In this document: piece after piece, positions 1,000-26,874 of the stretch
Layout: every line of letters begins with the position of its first letter
Position numbering within the stretch: the stretch's first letter is position 1
Source of the DNA: Plumapathes pennacea
Taxonomy: Eukaryota > Cnidaria > Anthozoa > Antipatharia > Myriopathidae
DNA: 64,000 nucleotides
Assembly: GCA_964036295.1 (NCBI GenBank)
Contig: OZ038463.1
Coordinates: 18,277,069-18,341,068, forward strand
Direction: 5' to 3'
Translations under genes and position numbers: made by a program
Notes under the pieces: generated by a model
The model's database searches: none
What the model saw: the letters and a program-made list of their open reading frames with translations, nothing else
Told to the model about the DNA's origin: nothing

Positions 1000-1127
1000 C
1001 ACTCGTCTCTTGTATTCTAAAAGGGTAACACCCACTTTTTCTGAATTTAGAATTGTGGATCACACCCATAACAGATGAGCATCCCCGCCAGCTCAGTGAA
1101 CAATCAAACTGATTGAGCCAATCAGAG
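1000..1127 (+). repeat. Left terminal inverted repeat of the KDZ element, promoter-bearing
   Basis: Begins CACTCGTCTCTTG and runs to ...AGCCAATCAGAG. Its inverted partner begins CACCCGTCTCTCG at 26874 and runs leftward. The inner end holds a CCAAT-box-like AGCCAATCAG about 65 bp before the KDZ ATG at 1184; the partner has the same box in front of the HMG-box gene. Positions 1111-1120 show the uninterrupted sequence into which the ISL2EU element jumped in the other repeat. Confidence 0.9.
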
Positions 1128-3734
1128 CGCTATATTTTTTCCGAAAAGAAAGTACGTGAGCACTGCGAGCGGTGAACTGAATTATGAAGCGCGTAAAATT
1201 CAGTGCGAAATTCATAGATCGGAGTGGGACTCGAAGGGAGAATATTTCATTGTCTTTACACGGCGGGACTTCTCAAGCATCCAGTTCTCCAGCCACTGTG
1301 CAGCCCGAGACACACGATGTTGCAGATCGCGAAGTGCAGGTCGAGTTATCGGACGATGGCGATGGAGATACGACAGTAACCGCTCACCAGAAACGACGGA
1401 TCAGCGAGATAAAAAATGGTGCAATCTACGAGAGCCCCTCGTTAGGGCTTTTATCGAGGAGTTATGTTTACTTCCGAACACGCGTTGTGTTCACTGCCTT
1501 GAAGTCCCAGCTGTAGCCCGTTGTACCTACTGTGGCCCAAGACAGTTTCTCTGTTTGGATTGCAGCAGAGATCTTCACCGATCGAGGAATGTTTTCCATG
1601 TCCTTGAGTTGTGGAAGGTTAGTATTCAGATTTCTCTCACAATTGCCGCGAACGAAAATGATCAAAGCTGTCTGATAGGTTGTTTTGCATGTGAGATTGC
1701 TTCGTTTTGATAGTCCAGAAGACTCTATAGCTATGTAATTATTCCTTGGTTTTACAGAATATTTGTTTGCAATTCATGTGTTATTTCCCTTTCTTTCTTT
1801 CTTATACTAAAGGATGGCATGTTTGTACCACTTTTCCCTAACCATGGTTCCTTGGAACTGAATGGGCACAACTGCTCATCTCTGGAGAAAAGAATATTGA
1901 GCTGCATAGATGGTCAAGGTTATAATAATTTTGTTTATATATACATGTTATATGTATATACATATGTATACCATCTCGATCAATTCCATGCATGTAATTT
2001 TTTCAATTACATTTTGATTTTTTTTTCTAGGAAATCACCATTCTAAAATGGTGACATTTTGCCAGTGTGAGAGTCCAGCTGAGACATTGCTATGACTAGG
2101 GTTATGGCCAGGTTCACCAGAACGTCCATCATGCGCCTTTGATTTACGCCTGATGGATCTTGCAGAACGCTTGTTTATTCACTGCAAAGTGTCCCTTAAT
2201 GAGTTCACAGAAATACTGGATATGCAGAGACCACCCTTGCAGCCTAAACTGGTACAGTATGGACTTAAATGCAGGTTTTGTAACTCTTGGTCTCATTTAC
2301 TTATTTGTAGTTGAAAGTAGTATAATACAGTGTATTAGTGTAGGCAATGATCTGGAAAATAGCATAACTTGCCAGTCTGATGTTACAGGAAGTGCAAATT
2401 GCCATTGGGGTATTGCCTGTGTGCCAGTGATTTATCTTATTTTGCAGTTGAATTCTGTGTACTCTATTTTGAATTCTGGTTGTTTTGAAGAATACAGGTA
2501 TAGTGCATCAATTCCCCCTTCAGCTGATTTAAAATCTAAAAAAAATTAGCAGATATTGTATATGATGTTTTTTCTATACAAATGTACACATGCACAGATC
2601 AATGACTTACATTCTACTCACTCTTTCATTTCACAAGCTCAATAAAATATCTGTGTCCAATCTTTATGGGCACTTTTTACAAAGGCTCGCCACTAATGAT
2701 TGGCTGCGCATATTTTATCTATTGGTATTGTACTGTTATGTACTACTTTGGGGTGTGGCAAGGTTCGATTCCTTGAGTTATCTTTTTCTGTAGCTGGTGC
2801 TACCCGTATGCCCTTTCCTGCAAACACCATGCTGACCAGTGACAAAAATACAAAAAAAAATGTTATCATAATGTTTTTGCATACATAAATAACTGCATGA
2901 TTGTATAAGTTTACAAAAAATGTATTTATATATTACCGGTACTCTGCGTGATATGTCAAATGGCTGTAATTTATATAATATCATATTATAATAATATATG
3001 ATAATGCTAATTTTATTTCATACATGGTTTGTGTTCAACATAAATAATTAAATATTAAATATTTGTAGTGCAATATGTTTCACATTATTTTACAGGTTCT
3101 TTAAGCACCAACTTAGATATCTGAGTAATGAATTCCCTGACCTGCATAATGGCTCTGACTGTCCCATTTGCCCAAAGGTACATATGTACTTGTTGTGCAT
3201 ATTTAGTGTTTAGTTGCCTGAGTGTATAGTCATGTTTGATGTGTTTGATATTATTTTGTATGATTTTGCAGTTTATTCATACAACAAAATCGCAGAGTTA
3301 AAGTATGTTACTTTTAGGCTGGTACTAACACTTTTCCTGTAAGTTTAGTATTTTGATAATGCTCACCTGTTGTTATATTGCTTGATTACTTTTTTTAATT
3401 AATTATCAATTCTTTACTGGTACATTTTTCGGCTTCTTTTAGGCTGAGGGAGTGCTCATTGAGAGCATGGATGCATGTTTTGGTCTAGCCAGGAAGAAAG
3501 CTCAGGGACAAGGAATGGGCACACAAAGCATGAAAATCTGTTTTTTGGAGACCAAGACGATGTTGACAACTTTGTTAACAATTACCAAGAAAGTCGTGGG
3601 AAAACAGAAAATGTATGCACAATTATATGCATGTGATATCTACATTTTGTTATTGGTGTTGGCACCTTCTTTTTAATAATGTTGTATGCAATTTGGTATG
3701 TAGGTAAATGCAAGAACGGTAATGATTTAATTTT

Positions 3735-4347
3735 CCCCGAACGAAGTGAGGGAAATACTCACGACACTAATGCAGTATTATTATACCGCCTACTTGGGGA
3801 CTCCAAGCCTGTCGCCATCTCGAAATTTAACGTTGTCTGTCAGTCTGTCTGTCTGGCGTACGACTTTAGGCGCGGTTACTCCGCTAACCAATAACAAAGG
3901 CCGGATCGATCACGTGTGCCTTGTTGTTTTACTCGGAATAACTTAGAGAATTAACAAATTGACGTCAGTTTTTTATGTGTCTGTCCTCTTATTGATCATG
4001 AAACGCGTCATAACATTGTCAAAAAGTTGTGGATCCACGTGGCGCTTCGCCGAAAATTGATGCTGATATATATGTTGTTTTCTTATTGGGTCAGAGCTTA
4101 GTAACACAAAGTTACTATATTTCAGGCCACTCTTTTTCTCCTTTAAGTGTTCAGCACTTGGTATAGTACAAGTAGTAAAACGTTATTTTAATACGCTTGT
4201 CCCATCAACTACAACAAGCTGGTTACATCAAAGGTTGTATGAAATAGACACATTACTTCTATGTTTATTTTTTTGCGTCGGAACTTCTAATATATGCCAG
4301 TGCAGGACGGAGTGAGGGGGGTATCTGCGATTATCGTATTTCTAGTA
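3735..4347 (+). mobile_element. Helitron-like non-autonomous fragment, copy 1
   Basis: Sits in the KDZ intron after 3612. It starts TTCCCCGAACGAAGTGAGGG and ends GATTATCGTATTTCTAG; the same two ends bound the longer copy at 59137-60440. The CTAG terminus and the link to an STPR-type coding fragment in the long copy point to Helitron or Helentron, but no clear terminal hairpin is visible. No coding content of its own. Confidence 0.5.
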
Positions 4348-6446
4348 TGCAATTGATGCCCCTTATAGGACTGCAACCAATTTCATGCGGGGGAGGTGCT
4401 TCCATCTCTTCGCTCAAAAGGAAAAAATAAACTTTTTGATGAGAAGGGCATATTTGGAAGGGTCTGCAGGCGTGATTTTCCAAAGGGCTTTACAAGTATA
4501 AAACATGGTGAAAGGTACAGTCATCAAATTAACCTCTCTCAGCACAATTCCTGTATACAGTAGTGGTTCTCATGTACATGTATGTCAAAAGCATTCTGGT
4601 TGTGGGTCTATGTATCCATATAGAGTTGAAAGATAATCCAGCAAATGCTTTTTCTTATGTGATCAGTCCATGTCCATCAATGTCAATAAATTGTCTTTTT
4701 CAGGATTTCCTACTCTGTATATGAACTGCAGAGACTAAAAAGAGCACTGAGTGACAAGCCAAACACCAAGCTTATTATGATGTATGACATTGCATGCATT
4801 TTGAATAAGCACATTAAGGTGGGTTAGAAGATATTATAAGCCAAAACAGTATTACAGGTACCATGATTGTTGTCTAACTTCAAGCAAGCTATCCTGTGCC
4901 TGAATGCAGCACTTATGCTAACTTGCATACTATTTCTGAAACTGTAATTTGTTTATAGGCATATATACTCATAATAATTCCTTTAGTTGATTTTACAGCA
5001 AAAAAAGCCTAATTCCTGTACAGGGGATACAAAGAAAGGAATGTTTACCACTGTTATTTGCTTTTGCAGAATAACCCTCGTCTAGAAGCTCCTTTTGGAG
5101 ATATTCCATTGGCAATTCCCATTTTTCACTGCTATGGGCATAAAGCTTCTTGTCAGGTATTTCACAATATTCTGTTGTTTCTATTTTGTTGTATAATATC
5201 AGATAATGATAAGTTTAACTGCCTTTAACTGGATACACAGATCTTTTATGTGTAACAATCTGTGCTGTTGCTTTTTACTACAAATTAATGTAGGTCCAGT
5301 TCAGTCCAAGGCGAACTGAAGGGATTGGTTTGACTGATGGCGAGGGTACTGAACGACTGTGGTCCTTCCTCAGAGACTTCTCTAGGATTACTAAAGAGAT
5401 GAGTCCTGAAAAGCGGATAGACACTTTGAGTGATGGCCTGTTGCATTATGGCAGGGGGCCTCATCAAGAAAATGGGTAACTCGGAATAGCAGTTCACTAC
5501 TCATTTTACTTTATTGTTTTAATTTTTACTTCAATATTTTGTTATCCAGATTTTCCATGATAGTAATGTAAAACATGTGTGTACTAATTTTAATTATACA
5601 GGTTTATCATTAAAGGTGAAGCTTATAAAGGCAAGAGACCTTGAAAGCAGTGTATGCAAAGAAGAGAAGGAGATTATAAAGGGTCTTCCAGGTAAATGCC
5701 ATGTAAATCATGGATTAATTAATTACGATAATTTTATGTTTTAACTGAACATTGTGTTTAGATTGGTGTTCTGTATAAAATCAATTCCTCCGTAGAAATT
5801 CACGAGCTGCCGATTGAGGAATGGGTAAAAGAAGAGATAAGTGACAATGTCGGCCCAGTTGAGGATGGTGAGCTTTGTTGACCTCATAATCTCTACGCTG
5901 GTAGTTTGTTTTCATTACTTTAATATATAAATTACAAAATAGAAGTTCCCTATGTCTTTTTTGGCTCCCTGCAGTTCTGGAGAAACAGTGGGATGAGACG
6001 TACGTTGATCTCTTGGACAATGCAAAGAAATTAAGGTGGGCACATCACTTTAGTTAACCAGTTAATGTTTTCTGTTTAAAGCCGCATTCGGATGATTGTC
6101 AATAAACCAAAGCCAAGGTAGGGTTTTGTTTTACCACGATGCTGAGCAGAAAGCCGGCTGAAAAACTTGTGTGGACCAATGCAAAAGCATACCAAAGTAG
6201 CGCAAAACAAACGCAATCACACGATTACTTTCAACAATCAACTTAAAACAACTCATGAACAACACCATTCAGGACAACAACAATTTGGGATTGATCTTTC
6301 CTATTTTTGTTTCAAGAAATGATGCTATGATGGCGTCGGACGATCAGCAGAACATCCTGGAAACTCAACGGAAACGAAACAGGTGGCTAGCCATGTAAAG
6401 AAATGATGCATTTTGATTAAGAAAGAAGAATGCGAATAATAGTAAT

Positions 6447-6452
6447 TGTTCT

Positions 6453-6494
<42 letters not shown>

Positions 6495-6496
6495 AG
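6447..6496 (+). repeat. (TTGCTG)n microsatellite forming a splice acceptor
   Basis: About seven TTGCTG/CTGTTG units end in TTGCAG, which is the acceptor of the KDZ exon starting at 6497. The repeat itself supplies the pyrimidine-rich tract. Confidence 0.8.
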
Positions 6497-8087
6497 AAAC
6501 GAAAAGGCACTTCAGTCATTCGAAAGGAAGAACGGTGTGCGCAAGCGATGGAAAGAAGGCGAACCTTCCTTCTCTAACGCAAAGAAAAGGCTGGTTATAA
6601 AGTGCAGAAAAAAGCTCCTTCTCCGGCTGCGCAAAATTGCATCTGAAAGACTGTTCCTTTTGGAAATGAAGAGAAAGTATGCTGGTCAGTATGTACTATG
6701 CATATGATAATTCAGTAGTCTCGTGACTCATATTTGTTTGGTAACAGAGTACTTCATTTTGATCGAGAGGATTATTTGCGTATATATCTGGATTATTTGC
6801 GTGTATTTGCGTATTTGTATTGTTTAACATTTACTGCATAAAAATTGGATGGGTTATTCTGTAAGACCCATGACATTTCTATTGTGCATGTTATTACTGT
6901 ACATTACCTTACGAGTTCCCTTACAAAAGGTAAAAGATGTTACTTCTCTTTTCTTTGTTTAGTTTGTAGATGGACAAGGTATCGCCATCAAGTTATCCAA
7001 GCAAATCAACAAGGCAACACTCCATTTGCAGAAAGGTCTGGTGAACCTTAATGCCATGCAGGAAGAGGGCCAGGAAATCCCGTTTGAAGAGGCGAAAGAT
7101 CCAGGCAGCAGTATTTACTCTGATGTGACATCGGCACAAACGGCTCCTAGAAATGTTTTTGTGCCATATCCAGTAAAAAGAAGTTTGATTGAGCTACACT
7201 GTTTGCGGAAGAGATGCGAAGAGGAGCGACTTCTGGTCAAAGAAGAGATGAGGAGACTTGTCTTGTTCTATACTGATCAGAGGGCAATTATCTCTTCACA
7301 TCTCCTTCTGCTAGCAAATGGTGCAGTACCTCACTCACTAGGTCTCCGAAACGTTCTTCTGCATGTGACAGCTGAATACCACCAGGAGCTGCTCTTCCTG
7401 AAAAGGATATGGGAAGGTATTGTGGAAGTTGAAGTAGAGGAAGATGGTCCGTCGTTTCTGGAATTGACCGACACTGACGTTGCAAGCATTCATCGCCTAG
7501 CGGAGGATAATGATCCAATGATGATGACTGACCTAAATTCTGACGATGACGACGACGACGACGACGACGAAGACGAAGATGAAGATGGAGATGATGATAA
7601 AGATTATCATCCCTTGGATAATTAGCAATAATTAGTAGGATAATAAAGAACTATGAACTATCGATAGAGAATGGCAGAGAAAGTGCCCGGCCTCGCCTCG
7701 CAGCTGTGAATCAAGTAAAGCCATTAAAAATCTTATTCCTGCCCATTCCAATGAGCATGCATTGCAATGGGTGACACGTAAATTAGTTTATGTCTATCAA
7801 AAATAAAGATGTTCGTTTAACGCACTTTGCCGCTGAACTTTGCCGCTAAACCGCATTTTGCACACATGACTTTCATGTAGCCTTATATAAGTGTGGGAAC
7901 ATCGTATTTCAAATGGTTAGCTTGGAGAGTTGTGGATAAGGCAACGACTATATACCAGAATTAGAGTCGGAAGAACAAAATATCTTGATTGGCAAGAATC
8001 TATTTTGACATTATGTGAAACGTTAACTTTCCAATTTCGCGCACAACGTGTAGTCAGTCGGGATGGAAAACATCGGATCAGATGTCT

Positions 8088-9799: not shown

Positions 9800-10607
9800 A
9801 TGGTAAGTTCTCATTTATCTAGTATACAGAGGGTACATTTCCATATAAATGTCTAAAATGGGTGAATACTTTGGGATATACAGGTCGTGATATTGGGTCG
9901 ATATAAGCAGACTCTGATACTCGACGCCGTTTTTATTCTTTCTTTATTTGCAGAGTAGGGGAGGCTCATGCAGAATCACAGGCTGTCCGAAAAGCGGACA
10001 ATGGCTGAAGTGCTTGGCGAAGCATCTAAAGAGGAATCACCCGTCCATTTCAATGAAGGAGCATCAGCGTTTTCCAATAATAAGAACACCTGCAAGGCCA
10101 AAACATATGAAGTACAGGAAAAAATGTGGATTGTGTGGAAAGGTAGCATTGCTCCTTCCACACTTGAAAAACTCCCACAACATTCGAAGTATAGATGCTT
10201 ATGTTGAAGAACTTCGCATGAAGAAAGCAAAGAAGGACAAGAATACCACAAGGTTTGATGAAAAAGTTAATGCACCTTCACTTCCTTTGAAAGCTGAGGC
10301 AAAGTTTACAGGAAAGAGAGAGGAAACTCTATCACACTTTCTAAAAAGAATTTATGTTCCAGTCAACAAATTCCAAGCCAAAATTCCAAGCACCGATGGA
10401 GCCCCCAATGATGCCTTGGGAGCAACTTTGGAAGTGATGGATGCAGTTGTCGAGGAAACATATAATAATGCTACAGAGGATGAGATTGTCAGATATCTAC
10501 TACATCAAAATCTGGGAACATTTGCGATGACTGCTTTATGCAGGGCAACAAAACATATGGACTTGACAGACACGTCTCAAAAATTGAATGAAATCAAGCA
10601 ACGTTAA
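9800..10607 (+). CDS. Unknown protein with two C2H2-like zinc fingers, probable transposon cargo
   Basis: The first exon appears to be just the start codon: ATG at 9800-9802 directly followed by donor gtaagt, with acceptor ...tttgcag at 9951-9953 and exon 9954-10607. Joined, it reads MSRGGSCRITGCP. About 218 residues. Finger 1 is C-x4-C ... H-x4-H near residues 7-28; finger 2 is CGLCG ... H-x4-H near residues 60-78. The middle is Lys-rich and the C-terminal 90 residues are mostly helical-looking with acidic patches. Opening directly at a non-AUG codon at 9948 is less likely than the spliced start. No family recognised. It lies between KDZ transposase and a convergent unknown gene, so it is probably DNA-binding cargo of the element, but that is inference. 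Confidence 0.6.
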
Positions 10608-11229
10608 TTTCCTGGAATGTCAAACAAAGATTTTTGGCTTACTATTCAACACCGAAAGGTTCTGTTCAATTATTACCGTTTTTCAATGTACCATCCGTTC
10701 CCTTCATATGGGCCGTGCCTAATCTGTGAAGAAGAATGCTGCTGCTCTGCCCCCCTTCAAAGTTTGTATATTTTTGTCAGATTTGGCACTTGTAAAAGTT
10801 CCTTTCAATGCAAGAGATGCCTATCTGATGTTCAAAATAATAATCGTATGCACCCCTGTTTTGATTTCTTTTTTTGTAAAAGGTGTGATGAGGAGTTTTA
10901 CGCAAGCCTTAAGTACAAGTAATTTTTCCATTCTAGTAATTCTTGCACAGATGTCCATTAACACTGAATGTATTTAACCCTAACTTTCAACATTTACTTT
11001 TGCTGTGATAACCTAATATTATCAGAAATAATTATACCAAAACCATCAATTCATCTACATCTTTAGAACTTTGTGTGAGGTTATACTTGCTGTACTTAGA
11101 GACTTCACGATTGTGTCATCTATGAAGAGATAATGGCTAAGGGAAATCCCAAAATCCCAAATAATTATGCATTGATTTGATTTACTTGATGTGGCATGCA
11201 CATTAGATCCAAACATGAAAAAAATAACC
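10608..11229. other. Spacer between convergent genes
   Basis: Likely shared 3' flanks. AT-rich with short accidental ORFs; no feature recognised. Confidence 0.5.
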
Positions 11230-11977
11230 TTATATCAAGTTATTCTTCCTGAGAACTCCAAGAACACAATTCTTAAACTGTGCTGGCATTAAAAACTGTG
11301 CACCCTCCACTACATCAAGTTCCTGCTCATAGTACAAAGGACCATGGTCACATTTGATGATCCATTTAAAGAGGATTTCTGTGGGAGTTTTTGCATGGAG
11401 GAACAAGAAGCTCATACTTGCTGGTACTTACATCACTTAGATTTAACCAAAAGCCTTTAAGCCTGGCTTTGCCACTTTTCAGCTTAGTGATATCCCCTAG
11501 AGGGGTTAGATGACAATAAAAAAGCCAAAATGGTTCATCTCTGGCCTCTGTGTATAGAGGGAGTACCACTCCCTTGTGCCTAGCATTCACTTTTATGTTA
11601 TTACCTACGGCTAACCACGCATCTACATCAAAGTAGGATGGGCAGTGGGTGTACAGGATTAGTCTCTCCTCTTGTGTCAAAGACAAATCCTGTACCTCCA
11701 CCTGCTCCTCAGAAATTAAGTTGTGCTCATCGGGTTCTGCAGCTTGCAACACAGCATTTGTAACTTCTTCACCAACTATCTTCTGCAATGTTGATCTGAT
11801 GATGTCTTGCCAGCCATTTGCAGGTGGAGTAGGTACAGGAAGGTTTGAATTCTGACCAGCTTCAGCATCCTGCTCTGGATGTATCAGGAACGTAATCTTG
11901 TCTTTGGCTTCCATGATGATTGTAGCCTGGTTGCTACCATAATTGAATGGTTTCTTGAAAACTATGCCTTCAGGCAA
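11230..11977 (-). pseudogene. Unknown protein, two overlapping frames (probable frameshift)
   Basis: Reading leftward, one frame runs from 11977 to 11366 (about 200 residues) and another from about 11415 to 11230. The second continues with IIKCDHGPLYYEQELDVVEG. The switch lies near 11400-11415, where GATGTAAGTACCAGCAAG could be a relic donor, but no acceptor fits, so a one-base shift is more likely. The 5' exon is not resolved; an in-frame stop precedes 11977. Visible traits: an acidic stretch followed by aromatic-rich text (PFWLFYCHLTPLG, LKGFWLNL). I recognise no family. It converges on the C2H2 gene and reads in the same direction as the HMG-box gene. Confidence 0.45.
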
Positions 11978-12944: not shown

Positions 12945-13019
12945 TTAATCTTTGTAGTCTGCATTTAACTTACAAAAGTGCTGTCTAAACTTCAGAATAA
13001 CATCTGGGTTAATGCTTAA

Positions 13020-14288: not shown

Positions 14289-14566
14289 GGGCCTTTTATA
14301 CGAGAGAAAATACGCCGCGGCTCACATAAGACTTGCACGTACTATAAATGGCACGCAATCCACACGTTCACGGCTAACACAAGGCGCAGCAGTATCCTGG
14401 CCTAGGGATTTTGAGCTGTTCTTATCTAAGCCGCGGCTTATACCTCAGTCGTGAAACCGTAAATCATTTATACGAGCAGTTCGCGTCTTGTGAAAGCCGT
14501 ACTCGTATGAATGGGTCTGCACGTCTTATGTAAGCCGCGGCTTATTTTCTCTCGTATGAATGGCCC
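14289..14566. mobile_element. 278-bp MITE nested in the TTAA element
   Basis: Ends GGGCCTTTTATACGAGAGAA and, inverted, GGGCCATTCATACGAGAGAA; about 50 bp of terminal repeat including GCCGCGGCT. Flanked by TA at 14287-14288 and 14567-14568, as in Tc1/mariner-type elements. The CCGCGG block also occurs once more inside. Confidence 0.8.
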
Positions 14567-15767: not shown

Positions 15768-16924
15768 ACCATTTCACGGTAACACTTGCTAAAGCGAATG
15801 TTGATTAATTTACCACCAACATTTTGGCGGGACATTTAAAAGTCACGCAAACGGCATCGAATTTCTGTTAAAGGGCTTTCGTGTGTTAAAATGACAAGCT
15901 CTTTCCAATTGTAAAGCAAGGATTTCAAGTTACAAGTACGTATTACTGTTAGCTGGTGTTGGCAAATTAGATGTTATGTTGACCGCGGTAAGTGGTTATT
16001 GTGTATAACTCACTGAAATCTATCTGAAAGTCGTGCTGTAGCTTTTGATTTAACTCCACCCAGTCACTCTTATGGCTTGTAGTGGAAATACTTGGTAATA
16101 TACACCTGCTTTTACTGCAGTGGTACTGTTAAAACTTTCTGTAATTAAGAATTTCTTGAATTCCGGAAAATGTAATCTGATCCGTACCCGCGTCGGTTCT
16201 TGTCAGTGCTCATTCATCACAACATCGCCGTTTTTCTGCGAAAATGACACTCTAAGTCACACAATGGAAAAGAATATAGCAAATCGAGTTTTGAATTGTC
16301 AAGCGTTTGATAATTTTCTAATCTGTGTACCTACTTAATGCCTCGTTTTAGCCGAAGCCATTTCCCGCATCCAGTACCGATTGTGTCAAACTACCCTCAC
16401 TGTTTATGTTTCTCAACGCGAGGCTTTTTGCGGGCCGCGGAAAACCTTTTGAGACAAGAAATTTAAATGTTTATTAGTTCAGTTGACGTTGGGTTTTTGC
16501 TCAAACGACATGTACCAAATGTTCCTGGTGAAATTAAAATTGGCTAAAATTTGACCTGCCGCTCAGAGGTTTTACCTTGGTCTTTTTGAAAAATCAAAAC
16601 ACTACCACAAGTTAAAGTTTCCATAGTTATTTTAGGTGCTTTAGAAATAAGAAGAGGTACTTTGAATCACTGACGAGTTGCAATGGCCAGATTGTTTACC
16701 GTTTTATTACACGAGCTTGTTAAATATGCACCATTTTCGTGTCGGTTCGAGGGGTCGGGAGGGCATTTTAGACTATCCGCGATTTTGTCAAAACGAAAAG
16801 GCAGTTGAACTTTTGAATATTATTTTCGAAGACAGTTCACCAAAGGGGTTCTTTGGATAAAATAAAATGAATTTCGAAATTTGGCAGTTGGCGCCCGATT
16901 CTCGATATTTACAGAGAGCCTCTC
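15768..16924 (-). repeat. Right inverted arm of the TTAA element
   Basis: Inverted copy of 13020-14185, with small indels, for example an extra C and single-base changes near 16616 and 16730. Confidence 0.85.
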
Positions 16925-17835
16925 TTAAGAATTGGAGTCCTTCCGCTGAACCCAGGTTAAACATTTCTCCAGCAGGATTCAGGAACAATGTACAGCTGTT
17001 GCACCCAAGATCTTCCAAAAGCATTACCTTTACAGTCATAACAGAATACATAAAACGAAATATAATCAACAGGTACATCCATGCATGCAGTATCTTTTTG
17101 CGAGAAATGACAATCAAAATATATATAAGCTCCGAGTGTATAGTATGTAGCTTAAGGCTCAGAATAAAGCTAAATAAATTTGGGCCTCCATTGCTTGCCT
17201 CTGCAAGTAACTGCCTTTTATGTTTGGCAATTAACTTCCTTTTTTCATCCTCAGATGAGGAAGAAATGTCAGGGGCTCTGTAGTTCTTAGCTGTTTCGTG
17301 GTACTTGTTCTTATCTTCCTCTGGCAGATTCTTCCACCTTTCTCCAGCAACAGCATTCTTTTCTTCCATCTTTAGATTCTTGCATTCATCTGAAAAATAT
17401 ATATCAGAAAGAAGGAGCTTCACAAAAGCTACAAATATGGAATTAACATCTGCAATTAATGTTTTTTTCCCCAAAATATACAGTAAAGATTCAATACAAA
17501 TTATGTGCAAGAGAGAACATTAACCTTTCACTATCTCTGCAGGCTAAAATGGTACTTATTTATTTACCTGGAGACCAACTTTATGCTATACCCATCCCTG
17601 CACAGCCCAGGAAAGTATGTCAATTCTATTCTTTCGTGAATGATTAAATTTTATGGTTCTCTAATCCAGTTAACACAGGAATACTGATTGACCTAAAGTA
17701 AAACATGACAATGAAAATATACAAATGTAGTTTAATATTTAGCACCACATTTAACACTCGTGAGATTATCGAGATGAACACTCGAAGATAAGTTTTATAT
17801 CTCCAAGTGTCCATGTATTATTCTGTTTATATAAT

Positions 17836-17985
17836 GAACTTTTGTGTGATACAGAGATTTCTGCCACTTAAGAAATGTGACAACATGCTAGATCACTGCA
17901 TCACATGTAAAAATATCTTATTTTTTTACGTATGTTCAAATACAACATTTCTCAGTGGCGGAAATCTCTGTGTCACACCAAAGTT
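17836..17985. repeat. Short hairpin repeat
   Basis: Arms of about 45 bp: TGAACTTTTGTGTGATACAG at 17836 and its inverted relative near 17941-17985, with a loop of about 65 bp. Likely a small MITE in intron 2 of the HMG-box gene. Confidence 0.55.
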
Positions 17986-18681
17986 TATGTAATAAATATC
18001 TATATTTGATATAATAAATTATAAATAATTATAAAAATCATGGATATAGGTCAGCCATCACAGCTCCGTTAATTATCATGGTACATACATAATAAATAGG
18101 TCTTTCTGTCTTGTCTAATGGTCTGAATGCCGTGGTAAAAAAGTAATTATTATTATAGTTAACCATCATTGCTTGTGACGTCACAAGCTTTAAAATGCAA
18201 CGATTTTTTTTTATTTTTTTATTTTTCTGGGTTAGAAATCTGCATGCGGTGATTGGTTCATATTATCATGTGATTTGTGATGACGTTGTGATCAAGTGAC
18301 TTGGCGGGCGAGCAGTTTCGCCATTTTGAAGACAGCAAGTTGCTTGCCTTAGTTGGCTCTGTGGATTATTTTATGGACCGCTCATCTTACTTACAAACGC
18401 ATACGCCGGCTGCGGTAGACCCATACTAAATTTCATTGAGCGGTTTTGGCTTGGGTCGGTCCGTTCAGCCTCAAAAGCCATATTGAAAGCCATGAAAGCA
18501 AATGCAATGAACTTATCAATGAACTGCATAACTATGCACAACTGTACAGAAATGTACGAAGAATCTGACATCCAGAACCTTGAGAACTTGAAGGAACAAG
18601 CTGAACGAAGCCGCTCGACATACAAAGACGAGAACCTGTGTAAAGACGGCGATTCTTGACAAGCGCTTGATAGCGGATTAT

Positions 18682-19248
18682 ATGGAACTGTTTAGTATGA
18701 GGGTGAACTTGAAGGTACTTTGTATTCTTTTACTTTGTATTATTCTTGCTGATACAAGTAAAGCGTCAGAAAATCTGACTTTTGTTTGGGATCAAAATTT
18801 CACTCTGCTGTGCATTTATGTTGTTGTTGCGACATTTTGGCTCGGTGCCATGAAGGTCAAACAATCAGTGGAACAGATGGCGTTGTTATTTGAAAATTGG
18901 GAAATGGCTGAAGAAAACGTGACCGTTGGTAGATCTCGCTTCGTTCAGTTTTATTGTATTCCCACAAATGTTTATGTGAAAGAAAACCGAAGTCCTGCAA
19001 GACGAAGTCGTGAGCCAAGCCACGTACCCTTGAATAACCTTTCACGCATTTTGAACAGAAACATTTTGAGTAGAAAAAGCAGGCGACTAATACAAGAATA
19101 CATTTCAAAGAATGTCCCAAAGTCGTCAAAAGTCCATGGTTATACCCGAGCTTACGTACTTCACAATGCTAATGCGTTCCGAGAACGTGCATGTAAACAA
19201 CATGTAAACAATAAAAAGCCACAGATGGAAATGGAAAGAGAAAATTAG
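18682..19248 (+). CDS. Unknown 188-residue protein of the 2.7 kb repeat
   Basis: First ATG in the open frame is at 18682. The N terminus resembles a signal anchor (LKVLCILLLCIILA), followed by a second hydrophobic segment (LCIYVVVATFWLGAM), then a basic, Arg/Ser-rich tail ending MEMEREN. The same frame is open over the first 118 residues in copies B and C, where a shared one-base insertion after SHVPL and a short deletion close it. Not recognised. Sequence conservation across copies could reflect recent spread, not selection. Confidence 0.4.
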   Translation: MELFSMRVNLKVLCILLLCIILADTSKASENLTFVWDQNFTLLCIYVVVATFWLGAMKVKQSVEQMALLFENWEMAEENVTVGRSRFVQFYCIPTNVYVKENRSPARRSREPSHVPLNNLSRILNRNILSRKSRRLIQEYISKNVPKSSKVHGYTRAYVLHNANAFRERACKQHVNNKKPQMEMEREN

Positions 19249-19741
19249 GATCAATAAACCATCGCTGCGAGAAAGCTAGAAGCTCAAAAAGAAGATTGCC
19301 AAAAGTAACCGAGGTGCTAAGATACGTTTTTATCTTAAAACGTGTTAAAAAACAGGCATTGCAAGATCAGACGTACTCAGAGATCAAAATCACAGAACCA
19401 AGTACAATGGGTTTTCTCTGTCAAGGGATATAGAAAAAAATTCCGGTCCTTCAATTGTTGATCCAAACAAAACGATCATCGGTTGGCTTTCTGGATGCAC
19501 GGAATCCATACTTTAAGAGCGATTTTGGCTTGCATTGTTTTTAAGCGTCGGAAGACTTGAAAATAGCCGTACACAAATGCTTGATGTGTTACCAGCGGGA
19601 CCCCCGTAAAGTACGAAGGGTTGTGTTTTGCAAATGCTCGATTATAGATACCGCTTCAACCAATGTATCTGTGTTCTGAGCAATATTTGTGTGAAAGAAC
19701 ATCGAATAAGTAGTAGAAGACGAGTCGAAACTTGATAGAAC

Positions 19742-20146
19742 TTGAACTTTTCCCTGCGGGCAGAGCGTCTCCCTTTGTCGGAAACTCTGCGGCTTTGTGT
19801 AACGCGCGGCGTATACGAACAGTCGGCGTTTAACTTCGTTTTGCGTGCAGTAAAGGTTCTTTGTTTATTGTCTGAGGATATTGAATTACTAATAGGTTTG
19901 AGGGAAATATCAAGCGAGATTAAGATACAAGATCTGTCAATGAAATGTCACGAGCATAATATCATAGAACGGGGAATCCCGAATCATCAGCTAATTAGCT
20001 TTCACTCACGCCGCTTTAACACAAGCAGGAAAGACCGGCAGGCGATTACATCGAGAATATTTGTCACTGAATACCTCGAAGTCTTCAAAAGCTCAAGGTT
20101 GATATCCGACTATCCGAGCCGTAATGTTCGCTCCACAAGCCCGTGA
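19742..20146 (+). other. Conserved 134-codon open frame of the 2.7 kb repeat
   Basis: The same open frame occurs in copy B (48237-48641) and, shortened, copy C (56329-56613). It opens at a TTG, with the first ATG only well inside, so translation is doubtful. It may be an exon of a spliced product. Confidence 0.3.
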
Positions 20147-21841
20147 TGCACGCCTTTGTTGTCACGGTATTCAAACGTCTGCAGCTTCCGATAGAGATTA
20201 ATTTCGTATCGACCCAGAATTTTAAGCGTTAAAGCTTAATGCATAGCAGTCTTGAACATATTAGTAATCAGACTTGTACATGTAGGATGAGTAACGTCTG
20301 AGATGGCTTTTTCATACGAAGTAATTTCATCATGGGAAGTGTCATGCTTTAATGTGCTACAGAGATAAGTCTGAAAGCTTTCAATTACAGCTACTTGAAC
20401 ATGATGCACACGCTGGGAAGATGAGATAAGGCTATTACGCTGTCTTACAGCTACTTAAGATGTCGGGTGTTCCCCAGTCAATCCCATTACAAAATAACAA
20501 CACAGTTCCTCCACAAAACATGTCAGCTTGAAAATTCACTCAACAAGGTTGCCAGGTTGTATAGCAAGCGTCACACAAGTACTGTCACGTGCATCGGAAA
20601 GCAATGAAAACTGGGTTGTTGCAAACGAAGAATATTCCTACGGGGCCTTCGATAATTGTTTTCTCTCAATTTTTATAATACACTTTTTCGTGAATATCTG
20701 TTTGACCGAAATTAGAAGAAAACAGGGCAAGAAAAATAAAGGGAGCTCTTGGATCCGTCATGTGCAAAAACTGACTCGGCTATAATATCTTTTGCATATA
20801 AACGCACGACAAAAGTTCCTCTCCCGGGACCCCTCGTGTCTCTATTCATTGTACTAATGACGTCACAAGCGCACTGGCCACGGGCCTGTCTTGTTAAAAC
20901 AAAAATACACACCATAAATACATTTACAGTTGCTATGCTACAGATACAACTGTGCAGCAATCACTATTTACAATACAGAATGTATATATGTGTATTTGAA
21001 AGCGTAAAATTACTTGTCTGGAAGAACTCGGCACAAAATACGTTGTATGCATTTGGTCCTTTCACGAGGGCTGGACGTTTAACCCGCTTTGACTGCTGCT
21101 GGGATTCAGGGTTTTCCATTTTTCTCTTCGCCTTTTCGTTTCCAATCCACTTCTGCAATCAAAAACCAAAAAAGTTATCGATAATTACTATACATATTCA
21201 TGATCAAACAAATTACACACATTTATTATTACACACGCACGAGGGACAAATTGCTTAATTGTTTGTGTAATGCATATATTAAATATTTTCCAAACTGTAC
21301 AATTAATCCTTAATCAGACAGTTTGAAAAACTAAGCCGTAAAAACAGTGGTTGCTTGAATGGGATTTCGAGTGTACAATATAATTATGATGAAGAATCGA
21401 TTAGGCAAACCGCGAGGCGCGGGGTGCAGATATTTTGAAACAGCTTGCGCTGGCGTACTGACAGCTGGCCGGAGTCGAGATTACCAAACACATTACGTTA
21501 AATTTTTCACAGAAAAACTACAGTATTAATACTGGGACTCTGTCGAAATTGCTGCCACATGCATAATACCTGAACTTTTTCCTTGCTGAGCCCAGTTTTG
21601 GTGCACGCTTGATCTATCAGTGCGGTGTACTGACGGCCCGTACCGACCATTCCTTGGTCGTAAAATCTCCTCAACGCTTCTTTCTTCGTATCGGACAGTA
21701 ATTGATAACGTGAATTTCCAGACATTGTTATTGAAAAAAGTGTCAGGAGTGATGCAAAATATGGAAAATAAAGCGCAAGCCACCGAAATCCGTACAGAAA
21801 TTTCTTCCGTACAATTCAACAAGCACTCTGATTGGCTCAAT

Positions 21842-21915
21842 TGGTGGTTTGCATGTGACGTCACGAGAAAAGTCACGTGGGGTCATCCGCCATGTTGGTG
21901 TACAACCTGATTGCT
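21842..21915 (+). promoter_or_regulatory. Left terminal repeat of the ISL2EU element, promoter-like
   Basis: Contains TGACGTCA (CRE-like), GTCACGTG (E-box-like) and CCGCCATGTTGG (YY1-like), about 55 bp before the ATG at 21954. The inverted end repeats GTCACGTG and GCCGCCATGTTGG in front of the transposase start. Confidence 0.55.
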
Positions 21916-21953
21916 TAATTCCAAGTCTGTTCGATCAGTAGCGATTACTTTCT

Positions 21954-24866
21954 ATGGCTTATATCAATTTGAATACCTCCGGGTCTTCCGAAAACCTTAA
22001 AAATAAAGTTCCTCTCCTATCGAATTATGCAAGTAAGCTTGAACCGCACGTGAAGCGGCGTTATTTGGAGAAAATAGCCGTCATTGGAGTCGACCCGGCG
22101 ACGATCTCAGACAAACACTTTAACCCGGAATGTTTGCCACCAATTGAGGCTACAGATATGCTGTGCTACCTTGTTTTGGAGACGAGCTTTTACACTCGAG
22201 AACAGTTTAAAGCCTTTAAAAGTCTCGAAGCGTACAACCAGATGGTTTCCGGCTTTATCACAAGCGTCCAAGGCCACTCCGTAGCGGGCAAATATGTAGT
22301 GCTAGCCAAGGTCCGTCACTCGCAGAGAATGAACGATCCGCCATTATCAGTCTGGATCATTACCGACAGGGAAGGAACTATTTTGTCTTCGCACTGCCTC
22401 GGATGTATGGCTGGGCTTTCGGAGACATGTTCACACGTGGCAAGCGTCCTCTTCTACATCGAGGCGTGGGTAAGAATCCATGGGAAGCTGGCGTGCACGC
22501 AAGTGAAATGTTCGTGGATTCTACCCACATATGTGAAGGAAGTGCCGTACGCTAGAATCAGGGACATCAATTTTTCTTCGGCTGGGAAAATGAAAGCAGA
22601 CATGGACAAGAAGATTGCAAACCTACAAGCGGCGGTTCATGCTGACACCTCTCCATCACCTGTTCCTACACCTTCACCACCAGCATCTGTACTCTCTACC
22701 CCAACGGCTTCAGATATGGCCTCTTTCTATGCAGAACTCAATCAATGCAGTATCAAGCCCGTTGCTTTGAACCTTATTAAGCCATATGCTGAAAGCTCTG
22801 TCAAGAAAAGTCGCATGGTTTCTACCATTTCTGACTTTTTTGACAAAAGATATTTAGACTACTCTTACCCTGATCTTCTTCATGCTTGTTCAGAAGTGAG
22901 AGTCCACTTAGGTGACGCTGACATCCAACAAGTAGAAAGGGACACACGGAAGCAAGCGAAAGGAAGTGGCTTTTTTAAGCACAGGGCTGGGCGTATTGGT
23001 GCTTCTCAAAGCAAAGCAGCATGCCACACAGATACAACTCAACCTTCCCAGTCTCTAATTACATCAATCTGCTACCCCAATTTATTTAAAGTAACTACAA
23101 AGGCAATCCTGCATGGCTGTAAACATGAGGGTGATGCTATTCAGGCCTTTGAAGCTGTAATGAAACCACAACATGCTTCTTTTGTAGTTAAGGAATGTGG
23201 GACCTTTATAAATAGAGAACATCAATTTCTACATGCCACTCCTGACTTTTTGTGTTCCTGTACATGCTGTGGAGAAGGATGTGGGGAGGTCAGGTGCCCT
23301 GCCTGTATTGATGACTGTGACTTTGATTCTTATGTTGGAAAGAAGGCATCTTGCCTCGAAAAAGTTGAGGGCACATACAAACTCAAAAGGGATCACCAGT
23401 ACTATTACCAAGTGCAACAGCAACTCTTTACCACACACAAGAAGTATTGTGATTTTGTAGTGTATGCTTTTGATGCCAACCTTCAAGCATTTGTGCATGA
23501 GCGCATCTATCCAGATAGTGCCTTCTGGGAAAATAACCTGCCCAAATTGAAAACATTCTGGAGAACATGTGTCCTATCTGAAATTTTGGGTAGGTGGTAC
23601 ACTAGAAGGGCTAATCTTCCAGTGGTTGCTGACATCAGTGATGACATATGCTACTGTAGAATGGACAAGGGGGCTGAGGCTACAGTGACTTGCTCCAATT
23701 CGTCATGTCCATTTTCCAAGTTTCACCTCTCTTGTCTGAGGATTACTACACCCACTCCAAAAACGTGGTACTGTCCAAACTGCAGAAAGCTGCCGGAGTT
23801 TCAGAAATCCAGGGCCAAGAAGCCAGCAGAAAAGAACATGCCAAGTGAAGCACTTACCATGGAACACATCTGTTTGTGTAAGACCAAGGCAGCCCCAGGT
23901 GACAAGCTTCTAAAGTGCCACAGGGACCAGTGTGATAGTGGGAGATTCTTTCATCTGGACTGCCTAAAGTACAAGCGTTTTCCAAACAACAGCAGAACCA
24001 GATGGTTGTGCCCAAGCTGCAGAAAAAAGCAGGGCTCTACCCCCACCCCCCAGCCCACCCCAAGATTCACCCCCTCCCCAACCCCCACTCCAAGATTCAC
24101 ACCCTCATCTACCCCAGGATTCAGCCCCTCCCCAACTCCAAGATTCACCCCCTCCCAAAACACCACTCCAAGATTCACAACCTCATCTACCCCAGGATTC
24201 AGCCCCTCCCCAAACACCACTCCAAGATTCACAACCTCATCTACCCCAGGATTCAGCCCCTCCCCAACCTCCAGCCCCCAGCCCAACTGCAGCGCTACAC
24301 CCACAACTCAGTCTGTTCAAATAACCGGAGTCAGCCACTGTGAGCCCAACCGAATGGCAGCATTTGAAAACCTGAAAAAAGAAGACTATGATACAATTTT
24401 GTCACCCACTGGATGGCTGGATTGTGTCATTATTCAACAGGCTCAAGTTTATCTCCAACAAGTCAATCCCTTACTACAAGGTTTTCAGAGAACAACCCTG
24501 GGACCAGTGAGAAATTTTGAGGTTATGACATCGGAATTTGTTCAGATTCTCCACACTGGTAATTCACACTGGGTTTGTGTCAGTTCACTAGGATGTTCAG
24601 CTGGATTTGTAAAACTGTATGATAGTTTGTTTCATAATTCAATTCCAGAAGAAGTCACCAGACAAGTTGAAAGCCTACTGCCCAGTGTGCCTGTGCAGCA
24701 ACAAAGAAATGGCAGTGACTGTGGCGTATTTGCCATCGCATTTGCTACGGCACTAGTTCATGGCATCCAGCCTGAGAATGTGACATTCAATATTTCTAGA
24801 ATGCGCCCACATTTGGCGCATTGCTTAAGAGCTGGTAGAATTACACCTTTTCCAACTGGAGTGTGA
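21954..24866 (+). CDS. ISL2EU second protein: SWIM finger, YqaJ nuclease, two PHD fingers, Ulp1-like protease
   Basis: Single exon, 970 residues, intact. SWIM-type finger near 148-161 (C148, C151, C159, H161). YqaJ/PD-(D/E)xK nuclease region about 325-500 with RAGRIGAS, Glu392/400, ATPDF (Asp431) and GEVRCP (Glu445); the usual Lys of E-x-K is Arg447. PHD finger 1 at 566-610 and PHD finger 2 at 640-689 with complete C4HC3 ligands. A Pro/Ser/Thr repeat at 696-775 (units like TPRFTPS, STPGFSPSP). C48/Ulp1-like cysteine protease at about 815-930 with His872, Asp890, Gln917 and Cys923 in NGSDCG. Probably a nuclear accessory factor of transposition. It converges on the transposase gene. The Arg at 447 could impair cutting. 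Confidence 0.88.
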   Translation: MAYINLNTSGSSENLKNKVPLLSNYASKLEPHVKRRYLEKIAVIGVDPATISDKHFNPECLPPIEATDMLCYLVLETSFYTREQFKAFKSLEAYNQMVSGFITSVQGHSVAGKYVVLAKVRHSQRMNDPPLSVWIITDREGTILSSHCLGCMAGLSETCSHVASVLFYIEAWVRIHGKLACTQVKCSWILPTYVKEVPYARIRDINFSSAGKMKADMDKKIANLQAAVHADTSPSPVPTPSPPASVLSTPTASDMASFYAELNQCSIKPVALNLIKPYAESSVKKSRMVSTISDFFDKRYLDYSYPDLLHACSEVRVHLGDADIQQVERDTRKQAKGSGFFKHRAGRIGASQSKAACHTDTTQPSQSLITSICYPNLFKVTTKAILHGCKHEGDAIQAFEAVMKPQHASFVVKECGTFINREHQFLHATPDFLCSCTCCGEGCGEVRCPACIDDCDFDSYVGKKASCLEKVEGTYKLKRDHQYYYQVQQQLFTTHKKYCDFVVYAFDANLQAFVHERIYPDSAFWENNLPKLKTFWRTCVLSEILGRWYTRRANLPVVADISDDICYCRMDKGAEATVTCSNSSCPFSKFHLSCLRITTPTPKTWYCPNCRKLPEFQKSRAKKPAEKNMPSEALTMEHICLCKTKAAPGDKLLKCHRDQCDSGRFFHLDCLKYKRFPNNSRTRWLCPSCRKKQGSTPTPQPTPRFTPSPTPTPRFTPSSTPGFSPSPTPRFTPSQNTTPRFTTSSTPGFSPSPNTTPRFTTSSTPGFSPSPTSSPQPNCSATPTTQSVQITGVSHCEPNRMAAFENLKKEDYDTILSPTGWLDCVIIQQAQVYLQQVNPLLQGFQRTTLGPVRNFEVMTSEFVQILHTGNSHWVCVSSLGCSAGFVKLYDSLFHNSIPEEVTRQVESLLPSVPVQQQRNGSDCGVFAIAFATALVHGIQPENVTFNISRMRPHLAHCLRAGRITPFPTGV

Positions 24867-24910
24867 TGGAGCCGGGAGTGTAGACAGTAAAATATTTTCC
24901 ATACAATGGA

Positions 24911-25010
24911 GTCAAAAAATAATCATGACACTAATGCAGTAGTATCGTTTTATTTGGAGACTCCAAGTGGGTCGCCATCTTGAAATATAATGTTTGTCAC
25001 ACTGAGGATG
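24911..25010 (+). repeat. Helitron-like 5' fragment, copy 3
   Basis: TAATCATGACACTAATGCAG and the following GGAGACTCCAAGTGGGTCGC match the 5' parts of the copies at 3735 and 59137. Lies between the two ISL2EU genes; truncated at both ends. Confidence 0.55.
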
Positions 25011-25104
25011 TTCAAAGTTTTGACAAGACCGTATGCTAATTGCAAATGTCTATAGACAATATAGACAATAAAATTGGTTGTACTGTCAGTATTAAATATT
25101 GCAT

Positions 25105-26645
25105 CTAATCAAAAGGAACAATTGGTGGAAAAAGATTGACAAGAGCTGAACAGACTCTAAGAATACGGTCAATCATAGGTACTCTGCTGTTTGGTGTTGC
25201 ACTACTTGGATCACAAGCAAGAAAATCAGTGGGTATATCACCCTCAAGGATAGTGTATTTTCTTCGTAAGAGGCCAATCACCCTCTCTACATGAATTCGA
25301 ACATTGGCAATACCTCTAGTACGCTCCACATCAATGGGGTCCAGTTGATCCTTGCCCTTAGTAAAAGCCGGGATCACCAACTTTGCTTGCTTGAACATCA
25401 AGCTTTCATCAATGGTAAAACCACGGTCTGCCATAACCATATCTCCTGGCAGTAGTTTGTCCAAGAAACCAAAATTTTCTGTCAAACATTTGTCAGAGGT
25501 GCGTCCACCCCAAGCTTCAGAAACAAATGATATGGTGCCTTGGGGGGTTATCCCAATCAAAACTTTGATGGTGTTATGATGCTTGTATGATGAAAACGTT
25601 TGAGCACGAGCAAGGAGATTACTAGGACGATCAATGAAAACCTCAAATCAATCAATAATTACAGTAGTCTTCTTGCCAAATGAAAATTGAAAACACTGGG
25701 GCATTGTTAACCACAGGCTTTCACGATCTGGCCACGATATTAGAGGTGAAAGGCGTGCATCCATTATTACCATCCAGGTGGTAAATATTCTGGACACCGA
25801 GGAAATATGGATCCTAAAACGGTACGCTAGGTCTTGAAATGGCATGTTTAGTCTGACCTTCAACAGCACCATCACATATTCTTGAAACTTTGAGAGAGTC
25901 AATGACCGACGTGTTACATGCGGGAAACATGGTTAAATGTTTTCAAGAGGACGTCGTAACATGAAAGACCAGTGTAAAAACGTACCTTTTCGTCGTTGCC
26001 TACAAAATCACTCTCTTCAAAAGGTAGCACACTGTTGGGTCTCTCAAATAAGAATTTGAATTCCTCAGTCTGTGAGTCTTTCTCAGCGAATGTTGCAGTG
26101 TACTCCTCAGTCTGTGTGCCTTTCTCAGCATACGCAATTTCCGACTCATCCTCCGCACCTGAGTCACATTCTGTTGGAGGTTCGTCATCTTCACCGACGG
26201 GAACGTCAAAGTGAACAGAAGAGATTGGCTCTCCAGGTTCGTTCATTTTTTTTCTTTTTTCCTCTGCTTCTTGCCTCTGAATTTCGATTGCCCTCTTAGC
26301 CCTTGCTTTTGACCTTTCGGCCCTTCCTACTCGCGCTTCATGATCGACAACTTTGCTTTTCGTATGTCCAAGATGAAGCGTCGGAACCCAGTCTGTGTTG
26401 TGTTTGTCCCACAAGGTTGCTGGGCGACCAGAAACAAAGTGCCGACTACATACACGGTCGTTTTCAAGAATTTTATCGGACAACTTGTCGCGACTAATCG
26501 CCGAGATCCATCGCATGCGTCTTTCTGCTGTTAATTCCTCCTGCTGTTCCCCTTGATTTGTTATCAAGGACGGCATCCGGAAGAACCTAATATCTTTATC
26601 ACGACTTGATCTGGTCGAACATCCAACAATTAGGCATAAAACCAT
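25105..26645 (-). pseudogene. THAP-domain DDE transposase of the ISL2EU element, inactivated
   Basis: Read leftward from ATG at 26645-26643 (MVLCLIVGC). THAP zinc finger in the first 90 residues: C-x5-C, Trp, then C-x2-H in VCSRHF. Then a basic stretch (RAERSKARAKRA) and an acidic linker. DDE_Tnp_4-type core: helix-turn-helix-like [16 protein letters not shown], first Asp in VIID, second in MADRGF, Glu in HVERVIG. Lesions: a one-base frameshift near 25914-25920 and an in-frame TGA at 25648-25650, directly after the first catalytic Asp, where relatives have Cys. ORF ends at 25105. It converges on the intact partner gene. Confidence 0.9.
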
Positions 26646-26762
26646 CTCAAAACTCACTCGGATACTTCACTGCACACAGGTTTGTTTACATAGGTTGTAC
26701 ACCAACATGGCGGCGTAGCAACTGTTGTCAAGGTACTGGTCACGTGAGTGCAAACCACGAAT

Positions 26763-26874
26763 CAGTTTGATTGTTCACTGAGCTGGCGGGGATGCTCATC
26801 TGTCATGGGTGTGATCCACAATTCTAAATTCAGAAAAAGTGGGTGTTACCCTTTTAGAATACGAGAGACGGGTG
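26763..26874 (-). repeat. Right terminal inverted repeat of the KDZ element
   Basis: Inverted match to 1000-1113 with 3 differences (positions 4 and 12 from the end, and one A/G in the CACACCCAT region). Its inner 16 bases were displaced to 21826-21841 by the ISL2EU insertion. Confidence 0.9.

What the first reader, a model, noticed from the sequence alone, without database searches (positions are those of the whole stretch)
1000..26874. A 26 kb multi-gene KDZ transposon with terminal repeats, duplication and four gene units
The sequence shows 128-bp inverted ends (3 differences), a CAGCGGC duplication, a KDZ transposase at one end, an HMG-box gene at the other, and two unknown genes between. 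The host gene continues on both sides. KDZ transposases are known; an anthozoan element pairing one with an HMG-box protein and a C2H2 protein under matching terminal promoters is, to my knowledge, not a standard described architecture.
Basis: partly seen in the sequence, partly recalled or inferred. Interest (0 to 1): 0.92.

Follow-up and report, generated by a model that had tools for sequence, protein, structure and literature searches.

The report
KDZ transposon with DNA-binding helper genes
An animal genome carries a 13.7 kb KDZ-type jumping gene, swollen in this window to 26 kb by other jumping genes that landed inside it, and besides its transposase it encodes two putative DNA-binding proteins, one of which holds a domain known from the vertebrate transcription factor TFII-I.

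Summary
The insertion is real: window 1000-26874 is one KDZ DNA transposon with inverted ends (115 bp, 3 mismatches) and a perfect 7-bp duplication; an independent copy elsewhere has its own 7-bp duplication. It is not a 26 kb element. Against that 13,696-bp copy, four later insertions (about 12.2 kb) are visible. One, 21842-26760, is an ISL2EU transposon that landed inside the right inverted repeat. The element's own cargo is three genes: KDZ transposase, a C2H2-like gene, and a reverse-strand gene with an HMG box, a GTF2I (TFII-I) repeat and, judged mainly from coral relatives, a homeodomain-like start. All three are open in the 13.7 kb copy and broken in the window. Four loci (two proven independent insertions, one duplicate, one decayed copy) keep the same order. 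Soft- and stony-coral relatives of the third protein exist (37-45% identity). All 4 GTF2I matches found in this 290 Mb genome belong to this gene family. I read it as a self-supplied end-binding and bending cofactor; that function is inferred. New variant of a known kind; linkage to KDZ in other species is only hinted at.

The parts
993..999 (.). 7-bp target-site duplication CAGCGGC, left
26875..26881 (.). 7-bp target-site duplication CAGCGGC, right
1000..1131 (+). left terminal inverted repeat, begins CACTCG; about 132 bp by comparison with the clean copy
26760..26874 (-). right terminal inverted repeat, outer ~115 bp (ends CGGGTG)
21826..21841 (-). inner piece of the right inverted repeat, split off by the nested ISL2EU
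1184..7625 (+). KDZ transposase gene, 16 predicted exons; broken here by one new stop (codon 202), two one-base deletions and an insertion; predicted frame open in copies B and C
9800..10922 (+). C2H2-like gene (ATG 9800-9802, main exon 9954-10922, 325 aa in copy C); stop at codon 221 here and in copy B
11230..21725 (-). homeodomain-like / HMG-box / GTF2I-repeat gene, 6 predicted exons (21570-21725, 21014-21152, 17199-17389, 16924-17027 with its remainder next to 13021, ~12484-12543, 11230-12041); exon 4 split by an insertion, last exon with two one-base indels
21842..26760 (.). nested ISL2EU transposon (4,919 bp), AT duplication at 21840-21841 and 26761-26762
21942..24866 (+). ISL2EU second gene: YqaJ and Ulp1-type (C48) peptidase matches, 974-aa open frame
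25105..26666 (-). ISL2EU transposase: THAP (frame 25914-26666) and DDE_Tnp_4 (frame 25105-25647)
13022..16923 (.). nested fold-back element with ~1.1 kb inverted arms, 7-bp duplication CTTAAGA at 13015-13021 and 16924-16930; not at this site in copies B and C
18171..20893 (.). nested 2.7 kb repeat, not at this site in copies B and C; relatives at about 47.5-50.2 kb and 55.7-58.3 kb of the window
3735..4345 (.). nested 0.6 kb insertion absent from copy C

Best explanation
The element is a cut-and-paste KDZ transposon of about 13.7 kb with ~132-bp inverted ends and 7-bp target duplications. It carries three genes: the CxC-KDZ transposase from the left end, a homeodomain-like/HMG/GTF2I protein from the right end, and a C2H2-like protein between them. 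The KDZ transposase cuts and joins. The three-domain protein most likely recognises the element's ends (homeodomain-like region and GTF2I repeat) and bends them (HMG box) so that the two ends can be paired, much as the RAG enzyme borrows HMGB1 from the host (recalled); here the element brings its own. The C2H2-like protein is probably a second end-binding or regulatory factor. Shown: anatomy, mobility, domain content, conservation of the third protein. Inferred: what the two extra proteins do. The confidence given is for the anatomy and mobility; within that, I give the cofactor role about 0.4 against the two functional rivals below.
For: Two independent insertions with perfect 7-bp duplications and matching ends: window CAGCGGC and copy C CTCTCAA (flanks printed). 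Copy C: three complete spliced frames with no internal stop under my models. Same gene order and orientation at 4 of 4 loci where all three genes were matched: window, its duplicate B, C, and a decayed copy at C2:19647256-19682181. KDZ, CxC1 and CxC2 above Pfam cut-off. HMG 7e-7 and GTF2I 7e-13 in our protein, both above cut-off. Family profile against solved GTF2IRD1/GTF2I repeats 1e-15 to 1e-7. Relative P0001 aligns over 97% of the query at 44% identity and has GTF2I, HMG and homeodomain matches, the last two below Pfam's curated cut-offs. Non-synonymous to synonymous changes over the three genes: C versus window 17 to 16, C versus B 25 to 17; I would expect roughly 3 to 1 without constraint (recalled rule of thumb, no formal test).
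Against: No expression, binding or excision data. Gene models are predictions, one with a GC donor site. Pfam gave no homeodomain match at E<=1 in our own protein; the call rests on alignment to relatives, of which 2 of 6 match weakly. Other KDZ loci in the genome (and diverged hits) have no match near them to the third protein, so it is not a general KDZ partner. Two diverged relatives of it, C7:10406436 and C1:39908112, have no KDZ match within the stretches I read nor in the genome-wide KDZ search. Of 4 named relatives in other species only 1 is listed on a contig whose length equals that of a KDZ-bearing one. The decayed copy's ends and duplication were not found.
Confidence: 0.82

Rival explanations
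1. Passenger capture (same anatomy): a KDZ transposon of this lineage picked up a host gene for the three-domain protein and a C2H2-like gene; they ride along without serving transposition.
For: Two diverged relatives of the three-domain protein lie away from detectable KDZ genes; other KDZ loci in the genome show no such partner.
Against: All three frames are open in copy C and the order is kept at four loci; the gene starts just inside the inverted repeat; in the stretches read, both off-element relatives match only part of the protein.
Confidence: 0.3
2. Anti-silencing cargo (same anatomy): the homeodomain-like/HMG/GTF2I protein and the C2H2-like protein act on host chromatin or transcription to keep the element expressed, as TET/JBP genes are thought to do in fungal KDZ elements.
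For: Fungal KDZ elements carry TET/JBP dioxygenases interpreted as escape from silencing (PMC12730594, abstract and passages); GTF2I repeats and HMG boxes occur in transcription factors.
Against: Pfam found no enzyme domain in the three-domain protein or its relatives.
Confidence: 0.3
3. The whole 26 kb with ISL2EU genes is one composite element that moves together.
For: The outer inverted repeats and duplication enclose everything.
Against: Copy C lacks 21842-26760 precisely, with the target uninterrupted; the insert has its own AT duplication, THAP, DDE and YqaJ genes as ISL2EU does; B lacks two other inserts.
Confidence: 0.02

Closest known systems
Kyakuja branch of KDZ transposons (fungi)
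   Same: KDZ transposase, 7-bp duplications, CA..TG termini, extra gene carried alongside the transposase (PMC12730594, section 3.2.1 read)
   Different: The two fungal families characterised there have no inverted repeats and carry TET/JBP; this one has ~132-bp inverted repeats and carries a homeodomain-like/HMG/GTF2I gene and a C2H2-like gene
Zisupton (KDZ)
   Same: KDZ transposase, terminal inverted repeats
   Different: 8-bp duplications reported for Zisupton (PMC12730594 passages); here 7 bp in two independent insertions
ISL2EU (for the nested 21842-26760 insert only)
   Same: AT duplication, THAP plus DDE transposase, second gene with YqaJ domain (PMC4482050 passages)
   Different: Second gene also has an Ulp1-type peptidase match; termini TGG/TCG rather than the usual GG
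Vertebrate TFII-I (GTF2I) family
   Same: GTF2I repeat, profile E 1e-15 to the solved GTF2IRD1 repeat
   Different: One repeat only, joined to an HMG box and a homeodomain-like region, and carried by a transposon
RAG recombinase with HMGB1 (analogy, recalled)
   Same: A DNA-cutting transposase-like enzyme working with an HMG-box DNA bender
   Different: Here the HMG protein would be element-encoded; no relationship of the enzymes is claimed

Membership tests
KDZ transposon superfamily | KDZ transposase domain with CxC cysteine cluster | tested here: met
   Pfam KDZ 4.1e-38, CxC1 2.4e-11, CxC2 1.7e-8, all above cut-off
KDZ transposon superfamily | mobile unit with ends and target-site duplication | tested here: met
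   two independent insertions with perfect 7-bp duplications
Kyakuja | 7-bp duplication and CA..TG termini | tested here: met
   CAC..GTG termini, CAGCGGC and CTCTCAA duplications; criterion from PMC12730594
Kyakuja | no terminal inverted repeats, as reported for two fungal families | tested here: not met
   ~132-bp inverted repeats at 96% in copy C; so it is not filed as Kyakuja
Kyakuja | groups with Kyakuja in a transposase tree | not tested
   no fungal reference sequences fetched
Zisupton | 8-bp duplication | tested here: not met
   7 bp if the termini are read as CAC..GTG; an 8-bp reading needs asymmetric termini
ISL2EU (nested insert) | AT duplication | tested here: met
   AT at 21840-21841 and 26761-26762; empty site seen in copy C
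ISL2EU (nested insert) | THAP plus DDE transposase and a YqaJ protein | tested here: met
   THAP 2.6e-11, DDE_Tnp_4 8.8e-49, YqaJ 3.3e-13
TFII-I (GTF2I) protein family | GTF2I repeat | tested here: met
   7.1e-13, above cut-off
TFII-I (GTF2I) protein family | several repeats (recalled) in a vertebrate host gene | tested here: not met
   one matched stretch only, transposon-borne; not filed as TFII-I
homeodomain proteins | homeodomain match in the element's own protein | tested here: inconclusive
   none at E<=1 in our protein; weak matches in 2 of 6 relatives, best 0.0018, below cut-off; the regions align
element-encoded synapsis cofactor | binds the inverted repeats and is needed for excision | not testable with these tools
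   needs biochemistry

The most novel reading that the evidence does not exclude
The TFII-I (GTF2I) repeat, called vertebrate-specific in recent papers, was carried in animals by a KDZ-transposon accessory protein (homeodomain-like + HMG + one GTF2I repeat), and the vertebrate TFII-I genes of the Williams syndrome region descend from a domesticated copy of such a transposon gene.
Probability: 0.13. Interest if true: 0.88.

Novelty: new variant of a known kind. Interest (0 to 1): 0.6.

Why it matters
In the papers I saw, KDZ elements with cargo are described from fungi, where they carry TET/JBP enzymes. A KDZ element, probably anthozoan, that supplies its own HMG/GTF2I protein would be a case of an element carrying its own end-bending cofactor. 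It also puts the GTF2I repeat, which belongs to a factor that two papers call vertebrate-specific (passages of PMC10721858 and PMC9900109), inside a non-vertebrate transposon. That makes the origin of the TFII-I family a testable question.

Tried and rejected
Considered and rejected. (1) A 26 kb composite element: copy C has the uninterrupted sites. (2) Ends from a chance MITE: the 7 genome matches found for the end all belong to this family (one search gives a lower bound). (3) The GTF2I exons as a separate gene: splice phases chain exon to exon and the soft-coral relatives have HMG and GTF2I in one protein. (4) Copy B as an independent insertion: its flanks match the window's over about 50 kb in inverted orientation, so it is a duplicate or misplaced haplotype.

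Led nowhere. A link of the diverged relatives on C7 and C1 to KDZ genes was not found. The C2H2-like gene has one partial protein relative (P0031, 57% over 26% of the query, 1 of 471 candidates); Pfam gave only a below-cut-off Sina_ZnF match to the window's frame (9.5e-6), so 'C2H2-like' is by eye. An automated exon chain gave spurious small exons and was replaced by a homology-guided one. One exon set had two wrong ends and was corrected. The exon 5 donor of the three-domain gene has two in-frame choices; one search uses the first. In my scripts copy C was cut one base too long at its right end, so one search prints its right duplication shifted by one base and a meaningless count of 96 mismatches between its ends; the duplication is read and the ~96% identity. 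No structure was predicted.

Literature: searches. In what they listed I saw no KDZ element carrying an HMG, homeodomain or GTF2I gene. The library holds open-licence papers only, and the founding KDZ paper (PNAS 2014, recalled) was not held. One search was too broad (7,313 papers, 30 listed, none with the term Zisupton).
Full report
The observation. The window lies at C2:18277069-18341068 of a 290 Mb genome in 24 contigs. Its ends at 1000 and 26874 carry inverted repeats of 115 bp with 3 mismatches and a perfect CAGCGGC duplication. The search with the 128-bp end returned 7 matches, a lower bound: two in the window, two in copy B (C2:17787033-17808162), two in copy C (C2:35556360-35570055) and one at C3:5557699 (copy D, where about 508 bp of left end match). 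None of the 7 is a short MITE.

Copies. B shares the window's flanks on both sides, about 98-99% identical over about 50 kb and inverted; it is a duplicate of the same insertion or a misplaced haplotype, not a second event. C lies in unrelated flanks and has its own 7-bp duplication CTCTCAA, so it is an independent insertion of the same element, 13,696 bp long. A decayed copy at C2:19647256-19682181 carries pieces of the transposase gene, the C2H2-like region and the end of the third gene, in the same order and orientation, 93-97% identical. I found neither its ends nor a duplication, so its independence is inferred from its place and unmatched flanks. Smaller transposase fragments lie on C5:11.38-11.40 Mb (83% identical) and C2:23.59 Mb (55-89%). 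More diverged transposase matches (28-48%) lie on C1:33.86 Mb, C3:6.23 Mb, C8:4.51 Mb and C12:4.63 Mb. None of these has a third-gene match nearby.

Nested insertions. Against C, the window holds four extra blocks: 3735-4345, 13022-16923, 18171-20893 and 21842-26760. They sum to about 12.2 kb; 25,875 minus that is close to C's 13.7 kb. The last is an ISL2EU transposon by published criteria: AT duplication, THAP plus DDE transposase, YqaJ protein. It landed inside the right inverted repeat, whose inner piece is left at 21826-21841. B has the ISL2EU but lacks the second and third blocks, so most simply those two came after the duplication.

Genes of the element, read on copy C. Left gene: 16 predicted exons, 908 aa; an earlier 929-aa model gave Pfam KDZ 4.1e-38 and CxC1 2.4e-11. 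Its relatives run from anemone (Actinostola, 61%) and stony coral (Oculina, 55%) through soft coral (Dendronephthya, up to 47%) and jellyfish (Rhopilema, 35%) to mussel and lancelet (33-37%); 24 of 5012 scored candidates pass 1e-3. From these I infer an anthozoan host; the genome itself is unnamed. Middle gene: a short first exon ending in ATG, then one exon, 325 aa, two C2H2-like fingers by eye. Right gene, reverse strand: six exons, about 500 aa, starting about 90 bp inside the right repeat. It contains an HMG box (7e-7) and a GTF2I repeat (7e-13), both above cut-off. Pfam found no homeodomain in it. Its N-terminus aligns with that of soft-coral relatives P0001 and P0002; 2 of 6 relatives match the Pfam homeodomain, best 0.0018, below cut-off, and P0001 weakly matches chain 2da4_A at 0.016, which I recall as a divergent homeodomain.

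State of the copies. In the window the transposase has one new stop, two one-base deletions and one insertion; the C2H2-like gene has one stop; the third gene is split in exon 4 by the fold-back insertion and has two one-base indels in its last exon. In B the transposase frame is open under the model, while a deletion removes the ends of the other two genes. In C all three are open. So the window copy is very probably not autonomous.

Is the third gene a true partner? Six of 7993 scored proteins pass 1e-3: three from Dendronephthya, one from Desmophyllum, two unnamed. In this genome its close matches are at four loci, all of them these elements; two diverged relatives, C7:10406436 and C1:39908112, match only in part and showed no KDZ gene nearby in the roughly 20 kb and 10 kb read or in the genome-wide search. 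The C2H2-like gene is likewise matched at the four loci plus one decayed relic at C1:24.09 Mb. Other KDZ loci from the Pfam search have no such partner match. One Dendronephthya relative (P0005) and one Dendronephthya KDZ protein (P0013) are listed on contigs of identical length, 1,936,687 bases; the other three named relatives (P0001, P0002, P0003) share no contig length with the 24 KDZ rows. That is a hint of linkage outside this genome, not proof.

The GTF2I repeat. A genome-wide search at E<=0.01 found 4 matches (6 candidates scored): copies W, B and C and the C7 relative; the tool's 14 control genomes gave none. All 4 belong to this gene family. The family profile matches solved GTF2IRD1, GTF2I and GTF2IRD2 repeats at 1e-15 to 1e-7. 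Two papers state in passing that TFII-I is vertebrate-specific (passages). A 2023 paper warns that 'GTF2IRD2' annotations in non-mammalian species can be transposons, because the gene has a fused hAT transposase (abstract and passages); here the repeat itself is matched, so that error does not apply.

How it probably works. Both outer genes start just inside near-identical inverted repeats, so the repeats may serve as promoters as well as transposase sites (inferred). The KDZ enzyme cuts and joins (from family knowledge). The three-domain protein has DNA-binding-type modules and no enzyme domain found; I take it to bind and bend the ends so they can be paired (inferred, about 0.4 against 0.3 each for the passenger and anti-silencing readings). 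Gene retention at these loci and 44% identity to a soft-coral protein argue for a kept function.

What is known. Fungal Kyakuja elements characterised in PMC12730594 have 7-bp duplications and CA..TG termini but no inverted repeats, and Zisupton has 8-bp duplications (section 3.2.1 and passages). This element shares the first pair of features but has long inverted repeats, so I file it as KDZ and not further. Cargo genes on KDZ elements are known from fungi; this cargo I did not see in the searches listed.

Noticed in passing
window -5.4 kb to 47 kb versus C2:17766854-17814624: An inverted, 98-99% identical stretch of about 50 kb lies about 470 kb away: true inverted duplication or misplaced haplotype.
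   Followed up: partly
window 13022-16923: Fold-back element with ~1.1 kb inverted arms and 7-bp duplication CTTAAGA; another copy at C2:17814620-17818534.
   Followed up: partly
window 18171-20893, 47.5-50.2 kb, 55.7-58.3 kb: A repeat family of about 2.7 kb with an open frame, three times in the window and again, interrupted, inside the decayed copy at C2:19673440-19681610.
   Followed up: partly
window 21942-24866: The ISL2EU second protein joins YqaJ with an Ulp1-type peptidase match and a proline-rich tandem repeat (24027-24268); SWIM-like and PHD-like stretches by eye only.
   Followed up: no
window 8069-8883: Three direct repeat units about 390 bp apart between the transposase and C2H2-like genes.
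   Followed up: no
window 31118-32632: Open frame of a glycoside hydrolase family 5 protein (Pfam Cellulase 5e-22).
   Followed up: no
G000 C7:10406436-10407107: A diverged GTF2I-repeat relative with a 207-aa open frame, the only GTF2I match outside the element copies.
   Followed up: partly
G000 C1:39904001-39913900: Diverged relative of the three-domain gene whose matched pieces break near where the element gene's exons do, with a LINE-like open frame between them.
   Followed up: partly
window 41719-43917: Gypsy-like retroelement open frame of 732 aa, reverse strand, judged by eye.
   Followed up: no
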